From assembly GCF_029338395.1 (NCBI RefSeq), contig NZ_CP119809.1, forward strand, positions 1,426,001-1,490,000: DNA of 64,000 nt. The letters run 5' to 3'. Every line of letters starts with the position of its first letter. Positions within the stretch are counted from its first letter, which is position 1. A program made the position numbers and the translations under genes. Below are positions 1 through 16,460 of this stretch, in pieces. The stretch comes from Halorussus caseinilyticus (GTDB taxonomy: Archaea; Halobacteriota; Halobacteria; Halobacteriales; Haladaptataceae). The notes below the pieces were generated by a model. That model saw only the letters and a list, made by a program, of their open reading frames with translations, ran no database searches and was not told the origin of the DNA.

Positions 1-640
1 TCTCGGTCGCGGTCCGCTGTCCGGCGGCTATCGCGTCGGCGAGTCCGTCGGGCGAAATCGTCGCGTCGTCGGTCTCGGTGGTCCGGTCGGCGGCGGGTTC
101 GGACTTCGGGGCGTAGAACTCAGTCACGAGTCGCTCGGCGATACCGGGGAGACGGGTCTCCGATTCGGCGTCCACGGCGACCGCTCGCAGGAACTGGGTC
201 TGGTACTCGCTGACGGTTTCGACGCCGATTCGGACGAACGCACAGACCCCCGTCCGGTCGTAGTAGGGGTGAAACGTCGCGTCGGCGACTTCGGCGCTCC
301 CGGCGGTAATCCACGCGGGGTACCGATAGTCTCCAGCGAGGTGGTCCTCGGTCAGGGCGAGTCGTCCCACCCTCGCCATCTCGGACGCTTCGGCGAGCAA
401 CTGCTGGGCGAACTCGCTGTCGGGGGTCAGCAGGTGCGACTCGTCGGTGTCGTCTCGTCGCTCGTCGCCGAGGACGACTTCGAACTCCCGGTCGTCGCTG
501 AAGCCGACATCGACGTGGGAGGGCAAGCGAACGCGCCACCGGTTGCCGTCTTCGCGGAGCGACGCCCCGAGACCGGCGAGGTACTCGCGGGCGAACGCCC
601 GTAGCGCCGACTGCGTTATCGGGTGGGTCGCGTCAGTCAT
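1..640 (-). CDS. Helicase-partner protein, N-terminal part (gene runs off left edge)
   Basis: An open minus-strand frame starts with ATG at 638-640 and stays open to base 1, so at least 213 residues are encoded and the C-terminus is missing. Its start overlaps the end of the SNF2 helicase gene by three bases, which implies translational coupling and one operon. The product begins MTDATHPITQSAL and is acidic, with no transmembrane segment. The stretch around residues 68-150 (LLTPDSEF, then RYPAWITAG and FVRIGVE) resembles the region that follows the motor in large RapA/HepA-type helicases. It may therefore be the detached C-terminal half of a split helicase; that is inference. It could also be a separate effector whose catalytic part lies beyond the window. 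Confidence 0.75.
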   Translation of the reverse strand, partial: MTDATHPITQSALRAFAREYLAGLGASLREDGNRWRVRLPSHVDVGFSDDREFEVVLGDERRDDTDESHLLTPDSEFAQQLLAEASEMARVGRLALTEDHLAGDYRYPAWITAGSAEVADATFHPYYDRTGVCAFVRIGVETVSEYQTQFLRAVAVDAESETRLPGIAERLVTEFYAPKSEPAADRTTETDDATISPDGLADAIAAGQRTATE

Positions 641-2390
641 CGTCGGCCCCCAAATCGAAGCTCTCGAAGACGCCGGTGTTGAACTGCTCGACTTTCCGGG
701 AGAGGTCCCGCTGTTCTTCGAGGTCGATTGCCATCCCCTCGAAGTCGTTTTCGAGGTCGATTTCCGAGTCGGCGTCTACGAGTCGGTCGAAGATTTCGTC
801 CTCAAAGCTCCGTCCGGAGTCTTCGAGGCGGGTGAGGATGGTACTCAACTCGCCGACGGTCTGCTGGAAGAGGTCGATTTTGTGGTAGAGTTTGTCGAGA
901 ACGTACTCCTCTACGGTGTCGTTCAGCGCCACGTTGAAGACGTACACCTCGCGCTTCTGGCCGATGCGGTGAATCCGGCCGATGCGCTGTTCGACCTTCA
1001 TCGGGTTCCACGGCAGGTCGTAGTTGACCATCACGTTGCAGAACTGGAGGTTGCGCCCCTCGTTCATCGCGTCGGTCGAGACCAAAACGCCGCCGTCCTC
1101 GCGGAAGTCGTCCACGATTCGCTCTTTCTCGTCGCTCGAATGGCCGCCGTGGAAGGCGTGGGTCTCGTAGCCCCGTTCGTCTAAGGCGTCTAGGACCCGC
1201 CGCTGGGTCTCGCGGAACTGGGTGAACACGATGACCCGGCCCATCTCGACGCGTTCGCGGGCCTCCTCCACGATGTCGAACAGTCGGCGTTGCTTGGTGG
1301 GGGTGTCGATGGCGGCTATCTCGTCCAGAATCGTTTCGAGTTCGTCGCGGTGGGCGAGTTCTCGGTGGTCGTCGAGTTGCTCGCGGATGGTCCGCTCTAA
1401 GGCGGCCGGACTGCTGACGACTTCCTTCTGGAGGAGCATCAGGACGAGCTTCTGGCCGCCGTCCTCGCTGTACGCGGACCGAACGTAGTCCGAAACCGAC
1501 TCGTAGAGGTCCATCTCGGCCTCGGTCGGGTCGAAGCGCCGGGTGTCGATAACCCGGTCGGTGAAGTCGATGTCGGTCTCGGCCCGGCGGTTTCGAATCA
1601 TCACCTGACTCAGACGCCGCTGGAGTTCGTCGCGGTTCACCAGCGTCTCCTCGTCGCGTTCCACGAAGTAGCGGTGGAACGTCTCCCGACTGCCGAACAG
1701 TCCGGGCCGCAGGAGCGAGACGATGTTGTAGAGGTCGGCGAGTTCGTTCTGGATGGGGGTCGCGGTGAGGAAGAAGGCGTAGTCGTAGGTGAGACCGTCC
1801 ACGAGGGCGTAGCGGTCGGTCTCCTCGTTTTTGACGTAGTGGGCCTCGTCCAACACGAGAACGTCCCAGTCGCGCGCGAGGACGGCGGCGCGGTGGCGGT
1901 CGCTCTTTGCGGTGTCGATGCTGGCGATAACGCGGTCGTGGGCGTCGAAGCCTCGAAACTCGTCGTCGTAGTTGCAGACGAACTCCAGACCGAACTTCTC
2001 GCGGAGTTCGCCCTGCCACTGCTTGGCGAGTTGGGCGGGGGTGAGAACCAGCACCGAGTCGTCGGTCTGGCGGTAGTGCATCTCCTTGAGAATCATCCCG
2101 ACTTCGATGGTCTTGCCCAGTCCCACCTCGTCGGCAAGTAGCGCCTTGCCGTCCATCTCGAAGAGCGCGCGGTGGGCGGCCTCTACCTGATGTTCGAGGA
2201 GTTTGACCTGCTCGTCGTCCACGCTGGCGAGCGACCGGAGTTCGGCGTCGGGTTGCCCGGCCGAGAGGCGATTCGCGACCACGGTGTGGCGGTGAAACGA
2301 GAAGTCCGCGCTCCCGGCGGCGTAGTCGGCCACCACCTCCTCGGGGTCGTCGTGCGTGACCTCGATGTCCACGAGGTCGCTATCGTTCAT
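633..2390 (-). CDS. SNF2-family (HepA/RapA-like) helicase/translocase
   Basis: A 585-residue superfamily 2 ATPase of the SNF2 group that should translocate on double-stranded DNA or remodel protein-DNA complexes. Visible motifs are Walker A DEVGLGKT (87-94), the DEAH box (181-184), TATPIQN (209-215), then the second RecA lobe with EGRNLQ, DLPWNP and QRIGRIHRIGQ carrying the arginine finger. It is shorter than typical RapA/HepA proteins (over 900 residues) and lacks their C-terminal region, which may be supplied by the overlapping downstream gene. Helicases of this type recur in DISARM class 1 (DrmD) and other modification-linked defence loci. Here it lies 76 bp downstream of the Fic gene on the same strand, so the two may be co-transcribed. 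Confidence 0.93.
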   Translation of the reverse strand: MNDSDLVDIEVTHDDPEEVVADYAAGSADFSFHRHTVVANRLSAGQPDAELRSLASVDDEQVKLLEHQVEAAHRALFEMDGKALLADEVGLGKTIEVGMILKEMHYRQTDDSVLVLTPAQLAKQWQGELREKFGLEFVCNYDDEFRGFDAHDRVIASIDTAKSDRHRAAVLARDWDVLVLDEAHYVKNEETDRYALVDGLTYDYAFFLTATPIQNELADLYNIVSLLRPGLFGSRETFHRYFVERDEETLVNRDELQRRLSQVMIRNRRAETDIDFTDRVIDTRRFDPTEAEMDLYESVSDYVRSAYSEDGGQKLVLMLLQKEVVSSPAALERTIREQLDDHRELAHRDELETILDEIAAIDTPTKQRRLFDIVEEARERVEMGRVIVFTQFRETQRRVLDALDERGYETHAFHGGHSSDEKERIVDDFREDGGVLVSTDAMNEGRNLQFCNVMVNYDLPWNPMKVEQRIGRIHRIGQKREVYVFNVALNDTVEEYVLDKLYHKIDLFQQTVGELSTILTRLEDSGRSFEDEIFDRLVDADSEIDLENDFEGMAIDLEEQRDLSRKVEQFNTGVFESFDLGADDD

Positions 2391-3648: not shown

Positions 3649-3843
3649 CGAACGTAGAAACCGTTCGAAGTCTCTAAGTAAAAAGTTGGCGGGGTGAATC
3701 GAACTCGAAGCTAAGTTTCGGCACGTAAATTGCATTCTCTGGAGTAAATCGAATGCAGATGCTCCCGACCCCGCGCCACCTGCACTGTCGAGTTGGAGTG
3801 CAACGAGCGTCGTGCAGTCGGCCATCGAACTCCCCGCCCGTGG

Positions 3844-4058: not shown

Positions 4059-6785
4059 CTACTCGTCGGTGAAGTCCGCGAGCGATTCGTCCACGCCGAG
4101 CATCTTGAGGTACGTCCCGTCGCCCGTCGCCTCCGCCAGACCCTCGCAGAGTTCCTGTAACTCGTCGGCGTCCCACCGTTCGAGGTAGTCGGCGGTGGAC
4201 TTGTCGTGTTCGTAGCGGTAGCGCAGGAAGTGCGCGCGGTCCAAGTCGGTCAGGTCGCCGTTGTCCTCCTCGACTTTCGTCTGGACGTAGGCCTGTCGTC
4301 GTTCGTCGCGCCAGTCGTAGCGTTCGAAGTCCCCGCCCGCGGAGACGAGTTTCATCTCCTGCATCTGCTCTTCGGAGGCGTCGGAGCGCCGCAGGAGTTT
4401 GCTCAGGTCGTCGTAGGTCGGGTCGGACGCTTCGAGCAAGTCGAGGTACACGTCCTGTTCGCCCACTTCACCGCCTTGGATGATGCCGTAGATTTCCTGT
4501 ACGACCTCCTTGGCTTTCATCGAGTCGCCGCCGCGTCGGACCGCCCCGTGGTGTTTCGAATACTCTTGGAAACACTTGCCCATCTCCACGACGCCGATGT
4601 CGCCGCTGGCGAGTTCGCGGTTGTTCTCCAACGTCTCGCGGGTCTCCTTCGCCGTGCGGACGATGCGCCGCCGGAGGGAGTTCCACGAAATCGGCGTCCG
4701 GTCTTCGACCGGACGCGCGACGATTACGATGTCGAAGGCGACTGCTTCGCCGGTGATGAACTTCGTCAAATCGGAGTTTATCGGATACGTGGCCGTCACT
4801 TCGAAGCCAGTTTCGCAGAGCGATTCGAGCAGTTCGCCCCACGACTCTTCGTCGCTGTGGTGGTAGGTGAACGCCAGCATTCCGTCGTCCTTGAGGGCGC
4901 GGTTGACTACCTCCAGTGCTTGGCCCATCTCGTGTTCGAAGTCCTCGGCGGTCTTGTCGAGGTAGGGGTTCGTGACGATGGATTCGGCTCTCGGGGTCTT
5001 CTCGCGGTCGAATCCGGGGTACTCGTCTTCGAGTAGAATCTTCTGCCAGACGTAGAAGAAATCGGCAACTTCGGAGTAGATGATGTTGTCGTAGTACGGC
5101 GGGTCCGTGATTACCGCATCGTACTCGTCTTCGTCGGTGATGTTGCGCATGTCGCCTTGGTGAACTTCGGAATTCAGGCCGATTGGTTGGGCGAACTCAC
5201 CGGTTTCTTTGGTTTCGCCGTCTTCGATGTGGCGGTCTGTCGGGGCGTTGGCGTACTCGACGCCCTTTTTCACCATATCGAACATGTTAGTGAAGTTGCC
5301 ACGACCGAACTCCGCACCCCACGGATTCCCTTCGATTAAATCGTTCTGCGGAGGGAAAGCCTTCATCCGATGAAGAGCAGACTCAATCTTGTTTGCAGTA
5401 TAGTTATACATAGTCAACAGATTATAGAAAAGGATTGAATCTGTGAGAGCCAGCAGTAGGTAGTCCCTAGCCTCTCCATCAATAGATTCGACCGAACGCA
5501 TCAACTTCGCCAGACAAAGTAACTGCCGCTCGTTGAACATGTCCGTCCAATCTTCTAACCCGTGCTGGAACACGTCGTTTCCGCTCACCGACGACGCCGC
5601 GGTTATCGCACCTTCCGGAATCTCTTCGTCGGGGACGTACTCGTGGAGGTCCGTCCGCGTGTTCCACTCTCGCTTTGCTTCCTCGAAAAGCCGTTTATCC
5701 GCACCCTCCGCTCCTTTGTATCCTTTATAAGAACTCTTCTCTTGACCTCGCTGGTCGCATTCCTCACAGTAGTACTCCACCGCGTAGAGACGGGTATCAG
5801 GTTTCCCCTGTTCCGCAATCCCGTCCGTAATCGACTCCTTCTGCCCGCACTCCGGGCAGTTGTAGTATCCGCCGCGACTCACGTTCCCCTCTTTGGGCAC
5901 CCACTCGTTGCCGCAGTCGTCGCACTCGCTCTCTTCCTGCCAGTCCTCGACTAGCGTGACCGCGCCGCAGTCCGGGCAGAGGCAGTTGTACTTGTCGTCG
6001 TTGTCGTAGCGTCCCGCCGCGACCCGGTAGTCCTTGAACAGGGGGACCGTGTGGCCGCAGGAAACGCAGTCGAGTTCCTTCACCCAGAAGTTGTACATCA
6101 CGTCGGCGTCGTGGCCCTCGTGTCCGGCGTCGGTGTGACCCCCGTCCACGTCGTGGTTCCCGTCGGCGTCACCGTGGGTCGCGTTCGGGCAGGGCGTCCG
6201 GTAGTACTGGGTAATCTCGTCGGCCACGTCGTCGCGGACTCGCTCGAAGGCGCGTTCGAGTTCCGCCACGTCGGTCCCGCCCGCTTCGAGTTCCTTCTTG
6301 GTGACGAACCACGCCACCGGGTTGAGGTCCACGCCCACCGTCTCCGCGCCGAACCGGGAGGCTTCCACCAGCGAGGTTCCCCCGCCCATGAACGGGTCGA
6401 GAATCTTCTTGTCTTTCACCCGCACGTCCTTGGGGTAGAACTCCCACAGCGACTCGGGGTCTTCCATGTCCACGTCCGCAATCTTGCGTTTCAGGTCCTC
6501 GCGGCGACTCCCCGCGCCCCCGAGGGTCTGGTTCCGGCCCGGTTCGTACACCTCGAAGTCCTCGGCGTCCATCTCCTCGTCCAGAAGCGAGTACAGCGAG
6601 ATGGCCCGGAACAGACACCCCGGCCGTCGCGCCCACCACTTGTGCATCGTGTAGATTGGCCGGTAGTACTGCTTGGCCCGACTCTCCTTGGCCGCGATTT
6701 CGTTGACGCGCTCTATCGGAAACCCCTTCTCGATTGGAAGCTGTGTCCGTTCCCCGGACCGCTCGCCGGACTCGTCGTGGGACAT
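4059..6785 (-). CDS. DUF1156-type Zn-ribbon DNA methyltransferase (copy 1)
   Basis: A 908-residue amino-methyltransferase of the DUF1156/COG1743 type, expected to methylate an exocyclic amine (N6-adenine or N4-cytosine) in DNA. The N-terminal DUF1156 signature YTMHKWWARRPG is near residue 45. The SAM motif DPFMGGG is at 130-136 and catalytic DPPYYDN at 561-567. Between them lie Zn-ribbon cysteines C240/C243, C268/C270/C273, C288/C291, C310/C313 and C340/C343. Residues about 429-492 differ sharply from copy 3 although the flanks are nearly identical, and the matching DNA is AT-rich (37% GC over 5401-5460). COG1743 methylases replace PglX in some BREX loci. A His/Asp-rich linker (residues 204-227) is longer than in copy 3. 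Confidence 0.93.
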   Translation of the reverse strand: MSHDESGERSGERTQLPIEKGFPIERVNEIAAKESRAKQYYRPIYTMHKWWARRPGCLFRAISLYSLLDEEMDAEDFEVYEPGRNQTLGGAGSRREDLKRKIADVDMEDPESLWEFYPKDVRVKDKKILDPFMGGGTSLVEASRFGAETVGVDLNPVAWFVTKKELEAGGTDVAELERAFERVRDDVADEITQYYRTPCPNATHGDADGNHDVDGGHTDAGHEGHDADVMYNFWVKELDCVSCGHTVPLFKDYRVAAGRYDNDDKYNCLCPDCGAVTLVEDWQEESECDDCGNEWVPKEGNVSRGGYYNCPECGQKESITDGIAEQGKPDTRLYAVEYYCEECDQRGQEKSSYKGYKGAEGADKRLFEEAKREWNTRTDLHEYVPDEEIPEGAITAASSVSGNDVFQHGLEDWTDMFNERQLLCLAKLMRSVESIDGEARDYLLLALTDSILFYNLLTMYNYTANKIESALHRMKAFPPQNDLIEGNPWGAEFGRGNFTNMFDMVKKGVEYANAPTDRHIEDGETKETGEFAQPIGLNSEVHQGDMRNITDEDEYDAVITDPPYYDNIIYSEVADFFYVWQKILLEDEYPGFDREKTPRAESIVTNPYLDKTAEDFEHEMGQALEVVNRALKDDGMLAFTYHHSDEESWGELLESLCETGFEVTATYPINSDLTKFITGEAVAFDIVIVARPVEDRTPISWNSLRRRIVRTAKETRETLENNRELASGDIGVVEMGKCFQEYSKHHGAVRRGGDSMKAKEVVQEIYGIIQGGEVGEQDVYLDLLEASDPTYDDLSKLLRRSDASEEQMQEMKLVSAGGDFERYDWRDERRQAYVQTKVEEDNGDLTDLDRAHFLRYRYEHDKSTADYLERWDADELQELCEGLAEATGDGTYLKMLGVDESLADFTDE

Positions 6786-7072: not shown

Positions 7073-7082
7073 GTTTTATGAT
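7073..7082 (+). promoter_or_regulatory. TATA-like box of the McrBC-like operon
   Basis: gttttatgat lies 24-33 bp before the ATG at 7106. That is the spacing expected for a leaderless haloarchaeal transcript and indicates that the McrBC pair is transcribed independently of the flanking minus-strand genes. Confidence 0.5.
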
Positions 7083-7105
7083 ACCCCCGCAGAATCCAAC
7101 AGGTA

Positions 7106-8338
7106 ATGAACGAAGGGAAACCGAGATTCGAACGATACGACCGGGAGGAGGCCGAGGAACACAGCCACTACATCACAATCGCTCTGGAGACGGCCAAGGA
7201 GTTCATCGAGAGGACCGAGGACCCGAGCGCACTGGAGTTTCTCGTAGAGGAGCAGAACATCGACACCGACGTACCCGGTGGCGGGACGATAATCAAGAAC
7301 AAACTCCTCACCTCGTCGGTCGCACCCCTCGAAGTCAAACAGACCGTCGCCCAGCGCAATCAGGACTTGGGCGACATCCTCGTCCCCGACACCGTGAAGA
7401 AGAACGCGAAGACGGCCGTGAGCGTCGGCAAGCCCATCGTCCTCTACGGACCCACCGGGACCGGAAAGACCTACTTCGCCAAGCAACTCGCGCTGGAGAC
7501 CTGTATCGACTACTCCATCCACACCGCGACCCCGACGTGGACGCCCGGCGACATCACCGGGAGCATCCAACCCGAGACCGAAGACGGCGAAATCGAGTAC
7601 CGACGCCGCGCGGGGTGCGTCTCACAGGGCATCGAGAAGGCCGACGAGTACGGCGACAACTGGGCGGTCATCGTGGACGAAATCACCCGCGCCGACATCT
7701 CGCAGGTGTTCGGGCCGCTCTACACCGCCATCGAGGACGAGGACCAAGTGGTCTTCCGGAACGACGACGGCGAGAGTCTCACCCTCGACGACGACGTGAA
7801 AATCATCTGCACGATGAACATGTCCGACCGGACGGTGAACGAACTCGACGACGCCATCACCCGCCGGTTCGCGATGATAGAACTCAGTCGGTACGGCGAC
7901 GACGAACGCGCGTCGTTGTTCGACCGCTGGATTGGGGGTCTCGGGTCGGAAGTCGAAATCGACCGCGACGAACTCCGGAGACTCTTCGAGCGCCACCACC
8001 GGGGAATCAACGAGGGCACGACCACGAGTAGCGGGGACGCCATCATGGAGTTCGGGCCGATGCACTACGAGGACGTGACGAAGTTTCTCGCCCACGCCTG
8101 CGCGAGCGACGGTCCCTACGAGGGCGAGCAAGCCACTGCGGTCGGACAGGCGTTCGCCACCTACGTCGCCCCGCGCCTCCTGAACGCGGCCGCACTCCCC
8201 CAAATCAATCGGCTGGCGAGCCATTACGAGACCTTGGACGACCAGTTCGAGGCGTTCGACCTCGGTCCGGCGGTGGACCTCGCGACCCGGCAGGCCGAGG
8301 CCGAAGAGCGCGAGATGGGCGTCAGCGCGTATGAGTGA
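7106..8338 (+). CDS. McrB-like AAA+ ATPase/GTPase
   Basis: A 410-residue AAA+ motor. Walker A GPTGTGKT lies near 115-122, Walker B VIVDEITRA near 188, and MNMSDRT near 236-242. The last fits the MNxxDR signature that separates McrB-type motors from MoxR ATPases. McrB hydrolyses GTP (some relatives ATP) to translocate DNA for cleavage by McrC. The roughly 90 residues before the AAA core do not resemble the modified-base-reading domain of E. coli McrB, so DNA recognition may lie in the partner or in a different N-terminal fold. The gene overlaps the McrC-like gene by 8 bp (ATGAGTGA), indicating tight coupling. It lies opposite in strand to all neighbouring island genes. Confidence 0.9.
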   Translation: MNEGKPRFERYDREEAEEHSHYITIALETAKEFIERTEDPSALEFLVEEQNIDTDVPGGGTIIKNKLLTSSVAPLEVKQTVAQRNQDLGDILVPDTVKKNAKTAVSVGKPIVLYGPTGTGKTYFAKQLALETCIDYSIHTATPTWTPGDITGSIQPETEDGEIEYRRRAGCVSQGIEKADEYGDNWAVIVDEITRADISQVFGPLYTAIEDEDQVVFRNDDGESLTLDDDVKIICTMNMSDRTVNELDDAITRRFAMIELSRYGDDERASLFDRWIGGLGSEVEIDRDELRRLFERHHRGINEGTTTSSGDAIMEFGPMHYEDVTKFLAHACASDGPYEGEQATAVGQAFATYVAPRLLNAAALPQINRLASHYETLDDQFEAFDLGPAVDLATRQAEAEEREMGVSAYE

Positions 8339-10124
8339 GACCCCCCACTACGACTACGGTACCTCCCTCTGTCCCGTCGAGGAGAGCCGGAAACTCGTCG
8401 TCGAGAACTGTCCCGAGACCGTCCGGTCGGAACTTCGCGCCGCGAACTTCGTCCGAGAGGGGAGCAAGTTCGTCAAAAAGCGCCCCAGACTGCGAACCGG
8501 GTCCGGCCGGGACGACGAACCGGACGGGCTTCAGGTCCTCACGGTCCGCGTCGTAGACGACACACTCCACGTTGAACCCGCCGACGTTGTGGGCATGGTG
8601 CGGTTGGTTCCGGGGACGAGCGTCCAAATCGAACCCAAAGTGAAGTGGGAGCACGTCGTTCAGATGTTGCTCACGGTCTACGACATCGACCGAACCCAGT
8701 CGTACTACGGCGTTCCCTTGGACGAGTTGGTCTCGGGCGGCGTCGAGTCTACCCGCATCCTCGCAATCTTGGCGATTAACTACCTCCGCGGCGTCCGGAC
8801 CGTCCGCCGGAAGGGGTTCATCCGGGACCTGAACGTCCGCCGACGGGACGGGTTCGAGGGGTTCGGTTCCGTGGACGTAGAACGGACGCTGATGAACCAC
8901 GCCTCCGGAAACCCCTCGCCCGCGTGGATAGAGACGAACGTCGAGTACGCCAACCCCGTGAACGCCGCGGTCCACATGGCCGGGAAACTCCTCCTCCGGT
9001 TGCTCCAACAGGACCGGGACGGCAACCGACATCCCCGACAGGACCTGCTCGTCTCGATGGTGCATCGGGAAGTCGAACGCATGGAGGAGATGGGAATCGA
9101 GAGCAGTCGGAAGCGAATCGGCGAGTACCGTCGCCTCTCGCTGGGCGACCTGCCGCGACAGCGCCGCTACTACCGGCGCGCGTTCCACACCGCCCAGTCG
9201 ATTCTCGCCTCGACCTTGCTCGGCCAAATCGGAGGCGGTCCCGAGGAACTGCTCGTGGACTACGCGCTCAGCATGGAAACGCTGTTCGAGGACTACTCTC
9301 AGCGAGTCCTGAAGCAGACGGTGAACTCCGTGGGCGACATCGACTACCTGAATCAGCTTTCGTCGGTGGAGTGTAAACACGAACCGTCGCTGTACCCCTT
9401 CGGACGCGACGTGAACAGCTATCACGAACCCGACCATCTCCTCTGTGACGACGGCGAGGCGCTCGCGGTGCTGGACTCGAAGTACTACCGCGAGGGCGAG
9501 AACCCGGCGACCGATTCCGGGCCTCGGTCCCGGATGTTCGCGTACGCCTACCTGACCGACACGGACCGGATGGCGTTTCTCTGTCCCCACCACCGGCCGG
9601 ACCGACTCCCGGTCCGGCAGACCGGCGGGGAAATCCGACTCGTCTCGCCGCGCGAGGACTTCACCTGCGAGGAGTACGAGAACCGCGTCTACGAGTACGT
9701 CTTCGAGACGCTGGCGCTCCGGTATCCGGAACTCCGGATATTCGAGGCCGCGACCGACGACTACCTCTGTCTCAAGGTCACGGACGAGGACCTCTCGAAG
9801 GTCCGCGACCCGAACGGGCCGTTCGGCATCAGCAATCCCGCGACGTTCGCCGACCGCATCATCTCGGCAATCACGTTCTCGTCCTACGGACCGAACAAAC
9901 CCGAGTTGGACCACCAGAGCAGATGGACGAAAGACCGAATCCGGGACGCCTGCGAGAAAACCGACGACGAGGGCCGTCGGACGTATCCCCAACACGAGAC
10001 GACCTGCGTCCCTATCTACGACCCCGACGGCAACGACGACCACGGGACGGTCACGCTCTACTTCCTCGAATCCGGCGACGAGGGCGCTTCGGTCAGCACG
10101 GAGGGACCGTGGGCGCTCATGTGA
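8331..10124 (+). CDS. McrC-like restriction nuclease subunit
   Basis: A 597-residue protein of the McrC/LlaJI group, the nuclease partner of the preceding AAA+ motor. The PD-(D/E)xK site is visible as EPD (D368) followed by VLDSKYY (D382, K384), with further acidic residues upstream near ECKHEPSLY. The region before about residue 330 probably mediates DNA binding and motor contact. McrBC systems cut DNA carrying modified cytosines at two separated sites. The protein is longer than E. coli McrC (about 350 residues), with a C-terminal extension of unknown role beyond about residue 450. It ends 4 bp from the convergent stop of the small gene at 10129. Confidence 0.88.
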   Translation: MSETPHYDYGTSLCPVEESRKLVVENCPETVRSELRAANFVREGSKFVKKRPRLRTGSGRDDEPDGLQVLTVRVVDDTLHVEPADVVGMVRLVPGTSVQIEPKVKWEHVVQMLLTVYDIDRTQSYYGVPLDELVSGGVESTRILAILAINYLRGVRTVRRKGFIRDLNVRRRDGFEGFGSVDVERTLMNHASGNPSPAWIETNVEYANPVNAAVHMAGKLLLRLLQQDRDGNRHPRQDLLVSMVHREVERMEEMGIESSRKRIGEYRRLSLGDLPRQRRYYRRAFHTAQSILASTLLGQIGGGPEELLVDYALSMETLFEDYSQRVLKQTVNSVGDIDYLNQLSSVECKHEPSLYPFGRDVNSYHEPDHLLCDDGEALAVLDSKYYREGENPATDSGPRSRMFAYAYLTDTDRMAFLCPHHRPDRLPVRQTGGEIRLVSPREDFTCEEYENRVYEYVFETLALRYPELRIFEAATDDYLCLKVTDEDLSKVRDPNGPFGISNPATFADRIISAITFSSYGPNKPELDHQSRWTKDRIRDACEKTDDEGRRTYPQHETTCVPIYDPDGNDDHGTVTLYFLESGDEGASVSTEGPWALM

Positions 10125-10128
10125 CCGC

Positions 10129-10524
10129 CTACACCCGGAACGGGACGACCAGCCAACCCGACTTCCGTCTCTTGATTCGGCGACCGAAAATCGGTTCCAG
10201 CGAGTGAAACTCGCCGTCGACTTCCACGTCGAAGGTGTCACCGGCACCTTGGACATCGCCGCCGACGACGAACTGAATCGCCGGAAGCGGGCGTTGACTG
10301 TTGAGGTAGTCCATCTCCCGACGCATCGTCGAGACGAGTCGGTCCCGGCGGTCCTCCTCGCCCGTGAGGACTTCTTCGAGACCGGTCACGCAGATTTCGT
10401 CGGGGAGGTCCCGACTCTCCAACTTGGAGACGAACTCGTCTACGGGCACCCTGTAGTCGGCCGACTCCCACTCGTCGACGACGACGACGTTGTACATCCC
10501 GGCTACCGCGTCGGTGTCACTCAT
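10129..10524 (-). CDS. Small unknown protein of the DUF499/DUF1156 operon
   Basis: A 131-residue soluble acidic protein (begins MSDTDAVAGMYNVVVVDEW) that I do not recognise. It has an alternating beta-rich pattern near residues 11-16 and 80-95 and a basic patch IKRRKSGW near its end, with no cysteine cluster or membrane segment. It starts 35 bp after methyltransferase 2 on the same strand, so it is probably the last gene of the DUF499-methyltransferase operon. Short accessory proteins such as DUF3780 are known beside DUF499/DUF1156 genes; whether this belongs to that family cannot be decided here. Confidence 0.75.
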   Translation of the reverse strand: MSDTDAVAGMYNVVVVDEWESADYRVPVDEFVSKLESRDLPDEICVTGLEEVLTGEEDRRDRLVSTMRREMDYLNSQRPLPAIQFVVGGDVQGAGDTFDVEVDGEFHSLEPIFGRRIKRRKSGWLVVPFRV

Positions 10525-10559: not shown

Positions 10560-13184
10560 TTAGTCCCGGAAGAGGTTCCGGTACTCCTCGTCGCCGGTAC
10601 GCTCGGCGAGGTCGGTCGCAACGTCGATTAGCTCCCCCGTCACCTCGATGTCGCGGCGTTCGTCTATCGGTTCGGTCCTCCGGTCGGCGTCGTAGCGCAG
10701 GAGTTGGACCAGTCCGAGCGCCGACAACTCGTCGCGGGCCTTCCCGCGGAGGTACGAGAGGCGTTCGTCGTCGTCCCACCGGGTCAGTCGAAAGCCGTCG
10801 TCGGCGTCGAACAGCGCCCGGTCGCGGAGGTCCTCGGGGTCGATTTCCGTCCCGCGACAGAGGCGGGTCACGTCCTCGCGCGTGGGGCGGTCCATCGCCG
10901 AGAGTTGGAGGTAGATGTCGTCGGGCGAGACGTTCCCGGCCACGATGTCGTACATCTCGCCGACGACTTCGCCGACGGTCATGACCGACCCGTCGCGGTG
11001 GACTTTCGCGTGGTGTTTGGAGTACTCCCGGAAGCATCGGCCGAGTTCCACGACGCCGATGTCGCCCTCCGAGAGGGTCTGGCCCTCCCGAATCTCGTCT
11101 CGCGCTCGCTTGGCGGCGAGGTGCATCCGTCGTCGAAGCGACGACCAGCTAATCGGTTCGCGGTCCGCGGCGGGTCGGGCGACGACGACGACGCTAAAGC
11201 TGAGTTCGTCGCCCATCACGAAGTCGCTGAGGTTCGCCGAAATCGGGTACGTCGCGGTCACGTCGAATCCCTCCTCGCAGAGCGACCCGAGCAGACTCGC
11301 CCACGACTCCGTTCCGGTGTGTCGGTAGGTGAACGCGAGAACGCCGTCGTCTTTCAACACGTCGCGTATCTTCGAGAACGCTTCGCCGAGTTCCGACTCG
11401 AAGTCGGCGGCGTCCTTGCCGACGGCCGGATTCTCCACGATGCTCTCCTCGCGGGGCGTCGTCTCGGACTCGAAGCAGGGGTACTCGTCGGCCAGAAGCA
11501 GTCGTTGCCAGACGTAAAAGAAGTCCGACACCTCCGAGTAGACGACGTTGTCGTAGTGGGGCGGGTCGGTGATGACCGCGTCGTACTCCGAGTCGAGGGC
11601 AACGTCCCGAACGTCGCCCTGATGGAGCGTGTACTCCCCGCCGACTGGCTTGTCGAAGGGGTCGGTCCGTGCGAGTTCCCCGTCTTCGAGGTGGCGCTCC
11701 GAGGGACTGTCGGCGAACTCGACCGCCTTGCGGATTTTCTCCCACGTGTTCTCGAAGGTGCCCCGTCCCGCGCGCGTCCCCCAGACGTTGTTCTCGGCGT
11801 ACTCGACTCGGGGAGTGAACGAGTTGCGCCGGAAGATGCCCTCGATTTTCGTCCCGGTGACGTTGTAGAGCGCGAAGTCGTTCTGAAACATGAGCGAGTC
11901 GCTGAACGCGACGAGCAGGTACTCCCGAATCGTCCGGTCGTCCACGTCGTCTATCGCCGAGAGCAACGTCGAGAGACAGTAGAGTTGCCGGTCGTTGAAC
12001 ATGTCTCGCCACGTCTCGTACCCGTGACTGAACACGTCGTTGCCGTTTATCGAGGACGACGCGGTAATCGCTCCCTCCGGGATGTCGCCGCGGGGCGCGT
12101 ACTCGTCCAAGTCGTCGGCGGAGTGCCACGCCTCGCTCGCGTCGTCGAACTGGGTACGGTCTCGCTCCGTTGCGGCCTTGTACCCCTTGAACGACGACCG
12201 GTCTCCGCCTTCGTCCTCGCAGTCGGTGCAGTAGTATTCGACGGCGTAGAGGTCCGCCGAATAGGATTGCCCGTCGGCGATGGCGTCCACGAGTGGATAC
12301 TTCAGGCCGCAGGAGGGACACCCGTAGTTGCCCCCGCGCGTCACCGGGCCGTTCGCGGGGACGAACTCGTGGCCGCACTCCGAACAGGTCGAGTCGGTCC
12401 GGTAGTCGTCGGTCAGGAAGACCGACTCGCAGTCGGGACAGAAGACGTTGTACCGGTCGTCGTTCTCGTAGCGTCCCGCCGCGACCCGGTAGTCCTTGAA
12501 GAGTCGAATCGTCTCGCCACAGGAGGTGCAGTCTAGCTTCCGCACCCAGAAGGCGTACATCACGTCTGCGACGTGGCCGTCGTCGTGCGGGCAGGCCGTC
12601 TCGTACTGCGAGCGGAGTTCCTCGGCCACCGACGCTCGAACCTCCTCGAAGGCCTGTTGGAGGTCCTCAACGTCGATTCGGTGGGCTTCGAGCGCTTTCT
12701 TGGTGACGAACCACGAGACGGGATTGAGGTCGATGCCCGTCACGTCCGCGTCGAAACGGACCGCCTCCAAGAGACTCGTCCCGCCGCCTGCGAAGGGGTC
12801 GAGGACGCTCTTTCCTTCGACGCGAACGTCCTTCGCGTAGAGGTCCCAGAGGGCGTCGGGGTCTGTCAGACTCACCGAGTCGAGCAACTGGCCGATGTCG
12901 TCGCCAGCGGAGTCGGCCGAGTCGTCGCCGAAGTCCGAGAGGTCCACGTCCTCGCCGCCCGGTTCGCGGACTTCGACCGTCTCGGGGTCGTCTACCAGCG
13001 AGTAGAGCGAAATCGCCCTGAAGACGCTCCCGAGTCGTCTGGCCCACCACTTGTGGATGGTGGACAGGGGCCGGTAGTGGAGTTTCGCCCGGCCCTCGCG
13101 GTCCGCGAGGTCGTTTACCTGCTCGACGGGGAATCCCCGTTCTATCGGGAGTCGCTCCCGCGAGTCGGGGTCGGAGTCAGACAT
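10560..13184 (-). CDS. DUF1156-type Zn-ribbon DNA methyltransferase (copy 2), DPPH variant
   Basis: An 874-residue paralogue of the other two methyltransferases, but clearly more divergent. The DUF1156 signature STIHKWWARRLG is near residue 46, DPFAGGG at 129-135, and the Zn-ribbon cysteine pairs between about 219 and 322 are retained. Motif IV reads DPPHYDN (540-546) where copies 1 and 3 have DPPYYDN, so the aromatic residue that normally stacks on the flipped base is His. The enzyme could have altered activity or serve as a DNA-binding partner. The gene starts 39 bp after the DUF499 ATPase gene, so the two should be co-expressed, and it is followed by the small unknown gene. Confidence 0.92.
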   Translation of the reverse strand: MSDSDPDSRERLPIERGFPVEQVNDLADREGRAKLHYRPLSTIHKWWARRLGSVFRAISLYSLVDDPETVEVREPGGEDVDLSDFGDDSADSAGDDIGQLLDSVSLTDPDALWDLYAKDVRVEGKSVLDPFAGGGTSLLEAVRFDADVTGIDLNPVSWFVTKKALEAHRIDVEDLQQAFEEVRASVAEELRSQYETACPHDDGHVADVMYAFWVRKLDCTSCGETIRLFKDYRVAAGRYENDDRYNVFCPDCESVFLTDDYRTDSTCSECGHEFVPANGPVTRGGNYGCPSCGLKYPLVDAIADGQSYSADLYAVEYYCTDCEDEGGDRSSFKGYKAATERDRTQFDDASEAWHSADDLDEYAPRGDIPEGAITASSSINGNDVFSHGYETWRDMFNDRQLYCLSTLLSAIDDVDDRTIREYLLVAFSDSLMFQNDFALYNVTGTKIEGIFRRNSFTPRVEYAENNVWGTRAGRGTFENTWEKIRKAVEFADSPSERHLEDGELARTDPFDKPVGGEYTLHQGDVRDVALDSEYDAVITDPPHYDNVVYSEVSDFFYVWQRLLLADEYPCFESETTPREESIVENPAVGKDAADFESELGEAFSKIRDVLKDDGVLAFTYRHTGTESWASLLGSLCEEGFDVTATYPISANLSDFVMGDELSFSVVVVARPAADREPISWSSLRRRMHLAAKRARDEIREGQTLSEGDIGVVELGRCFREYSKHHAKVHRDGSVMTVGEVVGEMYDIVAGNVSPDDIYLQLSAMDRPTREDVTRLCRGTEIDPEDLRDRALFDADDGFRLTRWDDDERLSYLRGKARDELSALGLVQLLRYDADRRTEPIDERRDIEVTGELIDVATDLAERTGDEEYRNLFRD

Positions 13185-13223: not shown

Positions 13224-16200
13224 TCATTCGAACTGGACCGTCGCGTCGATGTTCGTGGCCGACTCGGGGACGTTCTCCAAGATGTCGGCGACGACTTCGT
13301 GGGACTGGCCCAGTTCGAGTTGGAGGACGGTCTGGGCCTGTTGGAACTCGCCGACTCCTTGGAGTCGGCCGGGTGCCGCGCCGTCGCCGTTCGTGGTGAA
13401 CGACAGCGACCCGTAGGAGACCGACCCGGACTCGTGGGACTCCTGCCACTCCTCGCGCATCTCCGAGGCGCTGTCGCCCTCGTACTCGAAGGTCCACCCC
13501 TCTTCGGGCGGGACGCGGAAGCCAGCGCCGGGGAACCAGTCGCCGGGGTCGTCGGACCCGGTGGCACCGACGACGTAGTGGGGACGCTCCTCGCCGAGGT
13601 TGGCGAGCAGGAAGTGTTCGACCGCGGCCTCGGACTGGTCGGGCGCACACTCGCGCCGAACCGACTGGACCTGAAACGTCTCTTCCTCGTCGAGTTCGCC
13701 GACGAAATTCAGGATGCTGTCGCCGACATCGCCGGGCACCATCGGCGCGACGACGACCGAGGTGGGGTCGCGGTCGCCGAGGGTGCCCACGTAGTCGCCG
13801 CCGGTCTTGAGCCTGTAGCCCTCCGAGAGGAGCGAACTTACCGCGGTGCGGAACGCGGCGGCGGTGTCGTCCTGCGGGAGATGGGTCTCGGTGTCGTTGC
13901 GAATCGTCGTGAGGACCTGACTCGTATCCGCCTCGCCCGCGGCCTCAATCGTCTCCTCGATTCGAGTGCGGACTTCGGTCGGACCAATCGTCTCGGCGTC
14001 CGAAACGTCCCGGAGGGTCGCGTCCGACCGCACCTTGTCGAGGATTTCGTTGCCGCTGACCAAGACGTAGTGGTCGTCGTTGGTCAGTCGCCCGGCGGCC
14101 ATCTTCACGGCGTCCTCGGGGTCTTGGTCGTGAACCCACACGTCGGTCCGCTGGCGGAGGTCGAGTTCGAACGTCGCCAAATCGACTTCCTTGGTCCCCT
14201 CACCGAACCGCCCGCGGAGTTCGGAGACGACTTCCTCGGTAGACCACTTCTCGACTTCGCTCTCCAAGGCGAGTACCGTGTCCCGACTCAGACCGCGAAG
14301 GTCGTCGGTGAAACCGCTCCCGTCGTGTGCGAGGAGGGGTTCGTCCTCCAGTCCGTCCTCGACGGCGTTGACGACTGCGCGGGCGCTTCCGGGGATGGGG
14401 TAGGTCGGTTCCATCAGGAACTGCTCGTAGATTTCGTCTATCGTCGTCTCCGAGCGACTGTCGAGTCGGTCGCTGACGAGACCCCAGACGTGACGCTGAA
14501 GGTCGAAGGGGTCGGCCTCCACCGCGGCGGCGACGTTGCTGGCGTCCAAGACGGGTTCGGCGGCGACGAAGTTCGTCAGCGACATCTCCGCCGCGTAGTC
14601 GAACTCGTTGAGCAAGTCGTCGCCGTCGATGATTTCGCCGTAGGCGCTCTCCAAGCGTTCGAGCAGGTCGTCCTCGTAGTCGTCGTGCAACTCGTCTATC
14701 CTGTCGCGGATTTCCTCGGCCAAGTTCTCGTCTCTCCCGCGGATTTCCGCGCCGATGACCTCCTTGGCCTTCCCGAGGAACTTCTCCTGTTGGGACGACT
14801 GGGAGATGGTCTTGCCGTTCCTCGGTTGGACGAAGACGAGGGTGTTTCGCCACTGGCGGCCAGCGGGTTGGTTCTTGATGACCTCCGCGACGCTATCTTG
14901 GTCCCACGGGCCGTTTTTCACGACGGTCTTGACGTTCTGGCTGTCGGGGACGCTCTCCAGTTCGCCCTCGACGTTGAACCCGACGGCGTGTGCGCCCGCA
15001 CCGAACAGTTTCTCGACGGTTTCGCCGACGAGCGCCATCGCGTCCTCGTCGGGCACGTCGCGGGCGGCGTTCTTCACGAGCGACCGGGGATTCTCGTCCT
15101 CGCGGATGACGTAGCGGTCGTCCGAGCGCCAGAGGTGATACACCTCGCCCTGCAGTCGTTCGAGGTCCACCACGATGTCGTTGATTCGGTCGCCAGCGTG
15201 GTAGGTTCCGAGTACGATGTCGGAGGTGGTCGCGCCCTCCGCGAGTCCGGGGGTCAGCGAGTAGACGAGGACGGTACTCAGGATGGGGCGACCGTAGGTG
15301 ATGTCGGCGTCGGCGAGGCGTTCCCGGATGTCGTCGTAACACCGGTCGGGCCGGGAGTGTTCGACGTTGATTCGGGTGAGTTCGTCGTTGTACTCGACCG
15401 CATCGACTTCGCCGTGGGTCAGCAGGTCGGTGTCTCGGTACTTGTCCACGAGAACTTTGGCGAAGAGATAGAGCATCCCGCGAGTGGCCCCGGACTCGGT
15501 TTCGGCGAAGTAGCGGGTCTTCAGCGAGTCGATGAGGACGGGGTGGAACGGGTAGGTGTCGTACATCTCCTCTCGGAGTCCGTCGGGGAGGTCCACGTAG
15601 TCGGTGTCGGCGTAGGCCTCGACGTAGCGGTCGACCAGCGCGCGCATCGCCGACGGGTCGTCCACCGAATCGACCAATCGGTGGCGCAGTACCTCCCGAA
15701 TATCGACCTGATTGGACATGTTGACCTGCACGCGTTCGGGTTCGCGCGAGAGGATGTCGTGAACGTCCGACCCCTCGCGGAGAACCGAGACGAACGCGAA
15801 CAGGTCTGTGGTCGGCCGAGAAGTCGTCTCGAAAAGCGCCTGTAGGAACCCCCGGTTTGCGTCCTTGCGCCGACCGGACAGCGACCCGAACCAGTCTTCC
15901 AGTTCGTCCATGAAGAACGCGACGGTCCGGTCGCCGACCGCTTCCTGAATCACGTCGATGGAGGGATAGCCGCCGTCCTCGTCGTAGCGTTCCTCGTCGG
16001 GTTCGTAGTCCAAGCGCTCGAACAGCGGTTCCCAGAGGTACTCGTACTGCTCTTTCTGGAGGGAGACGACGATGGGGAGGGCGTCGTCGGGGAGCGCATC
16101 GCCCAGACCCTCGATACGGCCGTCTGCCCAGTCTCCGACGACGCCGGGCGACCGGAAGCAGTGGTAGAGCGCCACCATCTGGTGGGACTTCCCGGTGCCG

Positions 16201-16460
16201 TAGGGACCGTACATCTCGTGGAGGCGGTTGTGGTCCTCCCCCCGGAGGGTGTCCCGAAGTCGCTTCAGCGAGTCCTCCAACCCCCCGGTCAGAAGCGTGC
16301 GGCCGAAGAATCGCTCGGCGTCGGACTCCAAGGTGTCGGCGTCGCTATCGACATCGTAGAGGCGAATCTGGCCCTTGACGAGGCTATCGCCCTCGGTGAG
16401 TTCCGGACTGAGCGTCAGCACGTCGTCGATTGTAGTATCGAGAGTTCCGTCGGCACCCAT
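13224..16460 (-). CDS. DUF499-type large P-loop ATPase (BrxC/PglY-like)
   Basis: A 1078-residue ATPase with Walker A GPYGTGKS at 85-92 and Walker B FFMDELEDW (acidic pair D185-E186). Its size, early P-loop and partnership with DUF1156 methylases fit the DUF499/COG1483 group, related in layout to BrxC/PglY of BREX systems. These ATPases are thought to act as the motor or sensor of a modification-based defence complex; the exact role is unknown. The C-terminal part alternates helical DNA-binding-like segments, and the last about 200 residues are Gly/Ser/acid-rich beta. It heads the operon that continues into methyltransferase 2. A minus-strand TATA-like stretch (ttcataag, near 16490) precedes the ATG at 16460. 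Confidence 0.88.
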   Translation of the reverse strand: MGADGTLDTTIDDVLTLSPELTEGDSLVKGQIRLYDVDSDADTLESDAERFFGRTLLTGGLEDSLKRLRDTLRGEDHNRLHEMYGPYGTGKSHQMVALYHCFRSPGVVGDWADGRIEGLGDALPDDALPIVVSLQKEQYEYLWEPLFERLDYEPDEERYDEDGGYPSIDVIQEAVGDRTVAFFMDELEDWFGSLSGRRKDANRGFLQALFETTSRPTTDLFAFVSVLREGSDVHDILSREPERVQVNMSNQVDIREVLRHRLVDSVDDPSAMRALVDRYVEAYADTDYVDLPDGLREEMYDTYPFHPVLIDSLKTRYFAETESGATRGMLYLFAKVLVDKYRDTDLLTHGEVDAVEYNDELTRINVEHSRPDRCYDDIRERLADADITYGRPILSTVLVYSLTPGLAEGATTSDIVLGTYHAGDRINDIVVDLERLQGEVYHLWRSDDRYVIREDENPRSLVKNAARDVPDEDAMALVGETVEKLFGAGAHAVGFNVEGELESVPDSQNVKTVVKNGPWDQDSVAEVIKNQPAGRQWRNTLVFVQPRNGKTISQSSQQEKFLGKAKEVIGAEIRGRDENLAEEIRDRIDELHDDYEDDLLERLESAYGEIIDGDDLLNEFDYAAEMSLTNFVAAEPVLDASNVAAAVEADPFDLQRHVWGLVSDRLDSRSETTIDEIYEQFLMEPTYPIPGSARAVVNAVEDGLEDEPLLAHDGSGFTDDLRGLSRDTVLALESEVEKWSTEEVVSELRGRFGEGTKEVDLATFELDLRQRTDVWVHDQDPEDAVKMAAGRLTNDDHYVLVSGNEILDKVRSDATLRDVSDAETIGPTEVRTRIEETIEAAGEADTSQVLTTIRNDTETHLPQDDTAAAFRTAVSSLLSEGYRLKTGGDYVGTLGDRDPTSVVVAPMVPGDVGDSILNFVGELDEEETFQVQSVRRECAPDQSEAAVEHFLLANLGEERPHYVVGATGSDDPGDWFPGAGFRVPPEEGWTFEYEGDSASEMREEWQESHESGSVSYGSLSFTTNGDGAAPGRLQGVGEFQQAQTVLQLELGQSHEVVADILENVPESATNIDATVQFE

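What the first reader, a model, noticed from the sequence alone, without database searches (positions are those of the whole stretch)
7073..10124. McrBC-like pair inserted head-on between methyltransferases with a non-canonical McrB N-terminus
The pair is the only plus-strand unit of the island and carries its own TATA box. The AAA core has the McrB-type MNxxDR motif, yet its 90-residue N-terminus does not look like the modified-base-binding domain of E. coli McrB. McrC is also longer than usual. Its recognition mode may be new.
Basis: partly seen in the sequence, partly recalled or inferred. Interest (0 to 1): 0.5.

Follow-up and report, generated by a model that had tools for sequence, protein, structure and literature searches.

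The report
McrBC nuclease built into BREX-like system
A two-gene DNA-cutting machine (McrB and McrC) in a salt-loving archaeon turns out, in the relatives examined, to be a near-constant part of a larger DNA-marking defence system that has no other recognisable cutter of its own, rather than a stand-alone pair that happened to land there.

Summary
The pair is real: McrB 7106-8338 and McrC 8331-10124 (+), overlapping, behind a TATA-like box. McrB is an NxxD-type AAA+ protein (E. coli McrB, Z 17.2). McrC has the McrC fold (Z 18.1), an intact PD..DxK site and about 130 extra C-terminal residues. McrB residues 1-84 are predicted all-helical and match no known reader (0 of 41 homologues; E. coli McrB control positive).

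The larger result lies around the finding. The neighbours (SNF2 helicase, DUF1156 methylases, DUF499 ATPase) form an Hma / DUF499 "BREX-related" system whose helicase carries no nuclease. In 391 genomes of the class, 55 of 58 close McrC genes lie within 30 kb of this DUF499, and 55 of 59 such DUF499 genes have McrC nearby. McrC and DUF499 distances co-vary (r = 0.94). No PglZ was found within 30 kb; no other gene family recurs in more than 10 of 44 systems. One locus without McrBC has an HNH nuclease in the slot.

Best reading: McrBC is the restriction effector of a haloarchaeal BREX-related subtype. New variant of a known kind; function untested.

The parts
7074..7081 (+). TATA-like box (TTTTATGA) before the McrB ATG; likely leaderless promoter
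   Evidence: sequence; similar boxes by eye in 16 of 18 relatives printed; no experiment
7106..8338 (+). McrB-like AAA+ protein, 410 aa, NxxD motif
7106..7357 (+). McrB N-terminal helical domain (residues 1-84), no known reader family
   Evidence: searches (helices only; pLDDT block means 88-96 for residues 11-80; 0 of 41 match a reader), control
8331..10124 (+). McrC-like nuclease subunit, 597 aa; PD at residues 367-368, D382, K384
   Evidence: these columns invariant in 41
9726..10121 (+). McrC C-terminal extension (residues 466-597), conserved in the close McrC clade and not recognisably shared by the distant group
10129..10524 (-). p131: small conserved protein of unknown fold, tail-to-tail with McrC
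10560..13184 (-). DUF1156 DNA methylase 2 (motif IV reads DPPH)
13224..16460 (-). DUF499 AAA+ ATPase (HmaC / BrxC-like), no domain before the P-loop region that would be a HEPN fusion
16599..19271 (-). DUF1156 DNA methylase 3 (motif IV DPPY); start codon inferred from homologues
4059..6785 (-). DUF1156 DNA methylase 1 (motif IV DPPY)
633..2390 (-). SNF2 helicase (DrmD / HmaA-like), 585 aa, no nuclease domain found
1..640 (-). hC: coiled-coil CxxC protein (394 aa) that overlaps the SNF2 stop; cut by the window start (whole gene L186:13456-14640 -)

Best explanation
McrB-McrC is the restriction (DNA-cutting) module of a haloarchaeal subtype of the DUF499-centred BREX-related (Hma) restriction-modification system. 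The DUF1156 amino-methylase(s) mark the host's own DNA; the DUF499 ATPase, the nuclease-less SNF2 helicase with its partner hC, and p131 form the scanning and decision complex; on unmarked invading DNA they recruit or license an McrB ring, and McrC cuts through its PD..DxK site. McrB lacks a known modified-base reader, so targeting would come from the partner proteins, with the McrC C-terminal extension as the best candidate contact. Shown: gene content, linkage, orientation, co-divergence, folds by prediction, intact catalytic motifs. Inferred: complex formation, the target, GTP use, the direction of the methylation rule, the role of every unnamed domain.
For: Linkage: of 58 McrC places with bits >= 380 in 391 genomes, 55 have this DUF499 within 30 kb and 55 have p131 within 20 kb, 55 of 55 of these tail-to-tail; 54 of 58 have the SNF2 and 55 of 58 a DUF1156 methylase within 30 kb. 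Conversely 55 of 59 DUF499 places have McrC within 30 kb; the other four are a locus split between contigs (G364), two DUF499 genes with none of the other queried parts on the 20-kb stretch fetched (G338, G143) and one HNH swap (G229). Genome-level co-occurrence: 53 seen, 7.9 expected if independent. Control: 0 of 13 more distant McrC (bits 160-300) have the DUF499 within 30 kb. Co-divergence: McrC-DUF499 r = 0.944 (n = 37), McrC-p131 0.934 (n = 40), although the versions do not follow the hosts: three genomes of the window's genus carry McrC at 39-44% identity while genomes of three other families carry 73%, with the same pattern for DUF499 (47-48% against 84-87%). Nuclease gap: no nuclease domain in SNF2 or DUF499 (the ZorD and phospholipase-D-helicase models that match SNF2 do so over the helicase part); no lysine conserved at 90% in hC that could complete a PD..D/ExK site; no PglZ within 30 kb; no other gene family in more than 10 of 44 systems (fetched stretches only). 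G229, which keeps p131, DUF499, methylase, SNF2 and hC but lacks McrBC, has an HNH_2 gene about 33 bp after p131. Precedent: LlaJI uses McrBC-like subunits with its own methylases against unmethylated DNA (PMC1459862, abstract).
Against: No function, complex or methylome was tested. Transcription on the opposite strand from its own promoter would also fit an independent module. Two places keep McrBC without the core (G173; G290 with p131 only). One of the ten distant-group neighbourhoods (L094) has a 53% SNF2 paralogue with a 24% hC-like partner nearby, so the contrast with the distant group is not total. The HNH gene in G229 resembles a phosphorothioate-DNA, type IV-like enzyme over its HNH part, so the swap also fits a modification-dependent module. 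The McrB N-terminus is shared by the distant, unlinked McrB. Not every ORF of every locus was annotated, and single loci carry other nucleases. The distance correlations may partly reflect long shared descent of one island.
Confidence: 0.6

Rival explanations
1. McrBC is an autonomous type IV enzyme kept next to the system as a complement: it cuts viruses whose DNA modification lets them escape the methylase-based arm. Its helical N-terminus (or the McrC C-terminus) would then be a new reader of modified DNA.
For: McrBC is classically modification-dependent; own promoter-like box and opposite strand; a GmrSD-family type IV enzyme is reported to complement BREX (section 35 part 1 of PMC12839542); the HNH protein in the McrBC slot of G229 resembles a phosphorothioate-dependent enzyme in its HNH part; the N-terminus is conserved in unlinked McrB too.
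Against: An optional complement should come and go: the most frequent other accessory family is in 10 of 44 systems, whereas McrC is next to 55 of 59 DUF499. It would leave the system without a recognisable nuclease. No known reader found.
Confidence: 0.25
2. McrBC guards the methylase: it kills cells or cuts DNA when foreign or unbalanced methylation appears (epigenetic conflict), rather than serving as the routine effector.
For: Near-permanent linkage to DUF1156 methylases (55 of 58); methylation-triggered killing by E. coli McrBC is reported (PMC2614495, start of abstract in the search listing).
Against: The partner methylases would themselves make the trigger; no reader domain found.
Confidence: 0.08
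3. Coincidence of a defence island: McrBC travels in the same islands without working with the system.
For: Such islands gather defence genes; the window island also holds a Fic gene that is seen in only one other of the 40 neighbourhoods.
Against: 55 of 58 linkage with fixed orientation, co-divergence, 0 of 13 for the distant group.
Confidence: 0.05

Closest known systems
DUF499-centred BREX-related (BR) systems, Types 1-3 (= Hma; PMC12839542, PMC8565338)
   Same: DUF499 AAA+ ATPase, DUF1156 amino-methylase, SNF2 helicase in one locus; the helicase without fused nuclease as in Type 3
   Different: No helicase-nuclease fusion (Type 1), no HKD or DUF3780 match (Type 2), no PglZ nearby (Type 3); instead McrB, McrC and p131 in nearly every locus. 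McrB and McrC have 0 occurrences in the main text of PMC12839542 (supplements not readable here).
E. coli / Thermococcus gammatolerans McrBC
   Same: AAA+ with NxxD, McrC fold and PD..DxK; T. gammatolerans McrC aligns with window residues 12-461 (Z 17.8, rmsd 5.6, 372 aligned)
   Different: All-helical ~84-residue N-terminus in place of DUF3578 or YTH; about 130 extra residues at the McrC C-terminus; near-constant partner genes
LlaJI and BsuMI (McrBC-like subunits inside restriction-modification cassettes)
   Same: McrBC-like subunits encoded with methylases; LlaJI restricts unmethylated DNA (PMC1459862 abstract)
   Different: LlaJI has two 5mC methylases and a specificity-bearing McrB-like subunit; here DUF1156 amino-methylases plus DUF499, SNF2, hC and p131. 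That YdjA-YdiS, a fold match, belongs to BsuMI is recalled.
McrB branches linked to DNA methylases or DISARM-like cassettes (PMC11090510)
   Same: NxxD McrB with methylase, DISARM-like and SWI2/SNF2 neighbours is named there in general terms
   Different: No occurrence of DUF499 or DUF1156 in its main text; details deferred by the authors to a later paper

Membership tests
McrBC | McrB AAA+ with Walker A/B and Nx(xx)D motif | tested here: met
   GPTGTGKT (115-122), DE (191-192) and N238/D241 invariant in 41; E. coli McrB Z 17.2, rmsd 4.3, 263 aligned
McrBC | McrC DUF2357-type domain plus PD-(D/E)xK nuclease | tested here: met
   PF10117 over cut-off; 6hz4_M Z 18.1, rmsd 4.9, 312 aligned; P367 D368 D382 K384 in 41 of 41
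McrBC | GTP-specific hydrolysis, stimulated by McrC | not testable with these tools
   needs protein
Known McrB reader domains (DUF3578, EVE, YTH, B3) | Recognisable reader domain at the McrB N-terminus | tested here: not met
   0 of 41 in Pfam at E <= 1, control E. coli McrB positive for MrcB_N; no strand in residues 1-110 of the model. Fold comparison of this domain alone was not done (model cap reached).
Type IV restriction enzyme | Cuts modified DNA | not testable with these tools
   no biochemical or methylome data
DUF499-centred BR / Hma system | DUF499 ATPase + DUF1156 methylase + SNF2 helicase in one locus | tested here: met
   55, 55 and 54 of 58 loci. Scores lie below the NCBIfam equivalog cut-offs, so it is a divergent clade.
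BR Type 1 | PD-(D/E)xK nuclease fused to the helicase | tested here: not met
   585-aa SNF2 without nuclease domain; hC has no lysine conserved at 90%
BR Type 2 | DUF3780 gene, HKD-helicase fusion | tested here: not met
   no DUF3780 or HKD domain match in the ten window proteins scanned, nor DUF3780 in 29 p131
BR Type 3 | Stand-alone PglZ in the core locus | tested here: not met
   PF08665: none within 30 kb of McrC in 55 genomes; nearest 40.5 kb (under cut-off) and 47.8 kb
BR Type 3 | iSTAND component | tested here: inconclusive
   p131 has only chance-level family and PDB matches and was not folded
LlaJI-type restriction-modification | 5mC methylases with McrBC-like subunits, B3-type reader | tested here: not met
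   methylases are DUF1156 / N6_N4_Mtase type with DPPY or DPPH; no reader match

The most novel reading that the evidence does not exclude
A fourth subtype of BREX-related systems in which McrBC has no modified-base reader of its own and serves as a recruited nuclease for unmarked DNA: DUF499, SNF2/hC and p131 decide, McrB/McrC cut. The nuclease slot is exchangeable (McrBC in nearly all, HNH in one), which would show how BREX-like sensors are plugged into different cutters.
Probability: 0.5. Interest if true: 0.72.

Novelty: new variant of a known kind. Interest (0 to 1): 0.6.

Why it matters
How BREX and BREX-related systems destroy invader DNA is an open matter; a natural subtype in which the only recognisable core nuclease is a structurally well-understood one, McrC, makes the effector step directly testable. 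It would also show McrBC, the classic enzyme against modified DNA, working inside a self-marking system, and it would account for most of the haloarchaeal McrC genes that this query finds (58 of 72 places belong to the close clade by score, 55 of them with the DUF499 nearby).

Tried and rejected
Tried: PDB sequence search with McrC alone (no hit) and as a profile (T. gammatolerans McrC, E 4e-4). Profiles of the McrB N-terminus and McrC C-terminus against the PDB (chance-level hits only) and Pfam. p131 against Pfam and PDB (chance level). VIA-align rows for McrB cover mainly residues 64-388 and for McrC 101-468, so the two end domains remain untested by fold; their absence from the lists says nothing. 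Viral contigs gave four weak matches within residues 76-307. In genome contigs the matches outside haloarchaea were weak (best E 2e-11) and mostly on the AAA core; one, L166, spans residues 11-182 at 24% (the scan rests on two short peptide patterns, so distant relatives may be missed). p131 in a phylum sample: 9 of 246, all nine of the same class genomes as. Net charge of the McrB N-terminus is acidic like the rest of the protein; uninformative in a halophile. Sigma-70 scan irrelevant for archaea.

Rejected: island hitch-hiking; BR Types 1-3 as a full fit; HEPN fusion on DUF499 (P-loop near residue 85, no extra domain before it); the Fic gene as a core part (in the 41 neighbourhoods, window included, seen only in the window and L086).

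Rows dropped or merged before counts: fragments of G346 and of G049 merged, giving 72 places, nine partial 29-32% rows left out and two G323 pieces merged, giving 59, seven 53-57% paralogue rows left out and two G124 pieces merged, giving 58 rows, 13 of 98 rows (elsewhere, or a split piece) left out and two split genes merged, giving 83, 12 of 31 rows (ten on other contigs, two more than 0.8 Mb away) left out of the distance script. One search used 44 fetched systems and dropped matches covering under 75% of a query, so n is 30 to 41 per pair. One search used ORFs of 100 aa or more with at least 13% acidic residues in fetched stretches, minus those matching a core query.
Full report
What is there. 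The window holds two overlapping plus-strand genes, McrB 7106-8338 (410 aa) and McrC 8331-10124 (597 aa). McrB matches AAA_5, the NCBI McrB model by its core (residues 71-261, E 6.9e-16, far below that model's cut-off) and E. coli McrB in the PDB. McrC matches PF10117 over its cut-off. The genome is probably a Halorussus: G024, in the same genus as the window genome, has a contig of the same length (288182 bases) with McrB at the same place as the Halorussus marinus record L143 (inference).

Structure. An AlphaFold2 model of McrB from 41 sequences has mean pLDDT 87. VIA-align places residues 84-378 on E. coli McrB (Z 17.2, rmsd 4.3, 263 aligned). Residues 13-82 form short helices; the first strand starts at 111. 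The known readers contain strands (for EVE from a passage of PMC7641849; for DUF3578 and YTH recalled). None of 41 N-termini matches a reader in Pfam at E <= 1; E. coli McrB, used as control, matches MrcB_N. The McrC model (pLDDT 78) fits E. coli McrC (Z 18.1, rmsd 4.9, 312 aligned, residues 101-462) and T. gammatolerans McrC (Z 17.8, rmsd 5.6, 372 aligned, residues 12-461). Residues 466-597 lie beyond both. P367, D368, D382 and K384 are invariant in 41.

Relatives. In 391 genomes of the class, 66 have an McrC match. By score they fall into a close clade (58 places, bits >= 380) and a more distant group (13 places, bits 160-300, some of them fragments, plus one further fragment). The McrB N-terminus is recognisable in both (mean 34% identity to the window in 31 sequences outside the distant group, 24% in ten of it), whereas McrC 466-597 keeps 38% in the former and 14% in the latter. 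Two of the 31 (L080 of G290, L103 of G173) come from places where the system core is absent.

The system. Neighbours on the minus strand are an SNF2 helicase, three DUF1156 methylases and a DUF499 ATPase. The best PADLOC match of the helicase is DrmD, with HmaA lower; of the methylases HmaB; of the ATPase HmaC. PMC12839542 (sections 29, 33 and part 1 of 35 read, other parts as passages) treats the Hma set as DUF499-centred BREX-related systems of three types, told apart largely by their nuclease: fused to the helicase (Types 1, 2) or PglZ (Type 3). Here the helicase has no nuclease domain, and PglZ (PF08665) is not within 30 kb of McrC in any of 55 genomes, although 26 of the 55 have some match elsewhere, 13 over the cut-off.

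Linkage. Of the 58 close McrC places, 55 have the DUF499 within 30 kb, all 55 on the opposite strand; 55 have p131 within 20 kb, all tail-to-tail; 54 have the SNF2 and 55 a DUF1156 methylase within 30 kb. The misses: G364 (McrBC on a 9-kb contig; DUF499, p131, SNF2 and methylase on another), G346 (17-kb contig; no SNF2 found in that assembly), G124 (no p131 found), G290 (McrBC with p131 only) and G173 (McrBC alone). Of 59 DUF499 places, 55 have McrC; the others are G364, two DUF499 genes with no other queried part on the 20-kb stretches fetched (G338, G143) and G229. G229 keeps p131, DUF499, methylase, SNF2 and hC, lacks McrBC, and has a 401-aa HNH_2 protein starting about 33 bp after p131. 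If genomes were independent, 7.9 with both McrC and DUF499 would be expected; 53 were seen; genomes are in fact related. The distant McrC group has 0 of 13 with the DUF499; in ten of its neighbourhoods fetched, one (L094) has a 53% SNF2 paralogue with a 24% hC-like partner.

Co-divergence. Pairwise distances correlate: McrB-McrC 0.98, p131-DUF499 0.98, McrC-DUF499 0.94, McrC-p131 0.93, McrC-SNF2 0.81, McrC-methylase 0.74 (n 30 to 41; permutation p 0.001 each). The set does not follow the hosts: three genomes of the window's genus have McrC at 39-44% while genomes of three other families have 73%, and 11 haloarchaeal plasmid records carry McrC at 40-73%. The genes seem to move together.

Core gene set. 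A 394-aa coiled-coil CxxC protein (hC) overlaps the end of the SNF2 gene; it lies beside SNF2 in 33 of the 39 fetched loci that showed an SNF2 match (some loci are from the same genome); of the other six, three have SNF2 at the locus edge (L069, L070, L082), one has hC cut by the edge (L097) and two show only SNF2 paralogues (L083, L094). hC has no lysine conserved at 90% that would complete a PD..D/ExK site (37 sequences). Clustering 385 other ORFs of 44 systems found no further family in more than 10 systems. McrC is thus the only recognisable active nuclease of the core, with the caveat that single loci carry other nucleases.

Mechanism. I favour McrBC as the restriction effector of this subtype (confidence 0.6). 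The McrB N-terminus is unlikely to be the contact to the system, since unlinked McrB have it; the McrC C-terminus is the better candidate. LlaJI shows that McrBC-like subunits can serve a system that restricts unmethylated DNA (PMC1459862, abstract). The main rival, an autonomous modification-dependent enzyme as complement, is not excluded.

Literature. No paper in the held library contains both McrBC and DUF1156. Searches for McrBC with haloarchaea, BREX, DUF499, DISARM and methyltransferase showed no description of this system in the listings and passages seen. PMC11090510 (section 6 and passages) states that McrB branches associate with DNA methylases and DISARM-like cassettes, deferred to a later paper. 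Two surveys of haloarchaeal and archaeal restriction-modification (PMC6471742, PMC10609329; passages) have 0 occurrences of McrBC in their main text. Hma-embedded candidates are named in PMC12988326 (passages). Supplements could not be read, so an entry there is possible.

Verdict. Observation confirmed; interpretation partly supported; new variant of a known kind; interest 0.6.

Noticed in passing
L227:7002-13349 (window genome, about 39 kb left of the window): A second, divergent pair (McrB-like AAA_5 protein of 663 aa with an MTaX1 'methylase-associated' domain, plus a 503-aa companion without family match) in line with a fourth DUF1156 methylase (63% identical to methylase 1). Similar pairs stand beside methylases in L077:3286-6924 and L076:4730-8428. 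Looks like a compact LlaJI-style cassette.
   Followed up: partly
window 10560-13184: Methylase 2 reads DPPH at motif IV where the other sequences printed read DPPY (NPPY in one); its activity may be altered.
   Followed up: no
L209:6753-7958 (G229): HNH_2 protein resembling a phosphorothioated-DNA restriction enzyme over its HNH part, in the place where McrBC normally stands.
   Followed up: partly
window 2467-3825: SoFic-like Fic protein with winged-helix end inside the island; among 41 neighbourhoods (window included) seen only here and in L086.
   Followed up: no
44 fetched systems: A family of about 632 aa (by eye DUF262/GmrSD-like, not searched) accompanies 10 of 44 systems, the most frequent accessory gene found.
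   Followed up: no
window 10129-10524: p131 has only chance-level family matches yet is as constant as McrC; in one branch (such as L098-L101) it follows DUF499 directly, with a gap of a few bases.
   Followed up: partly
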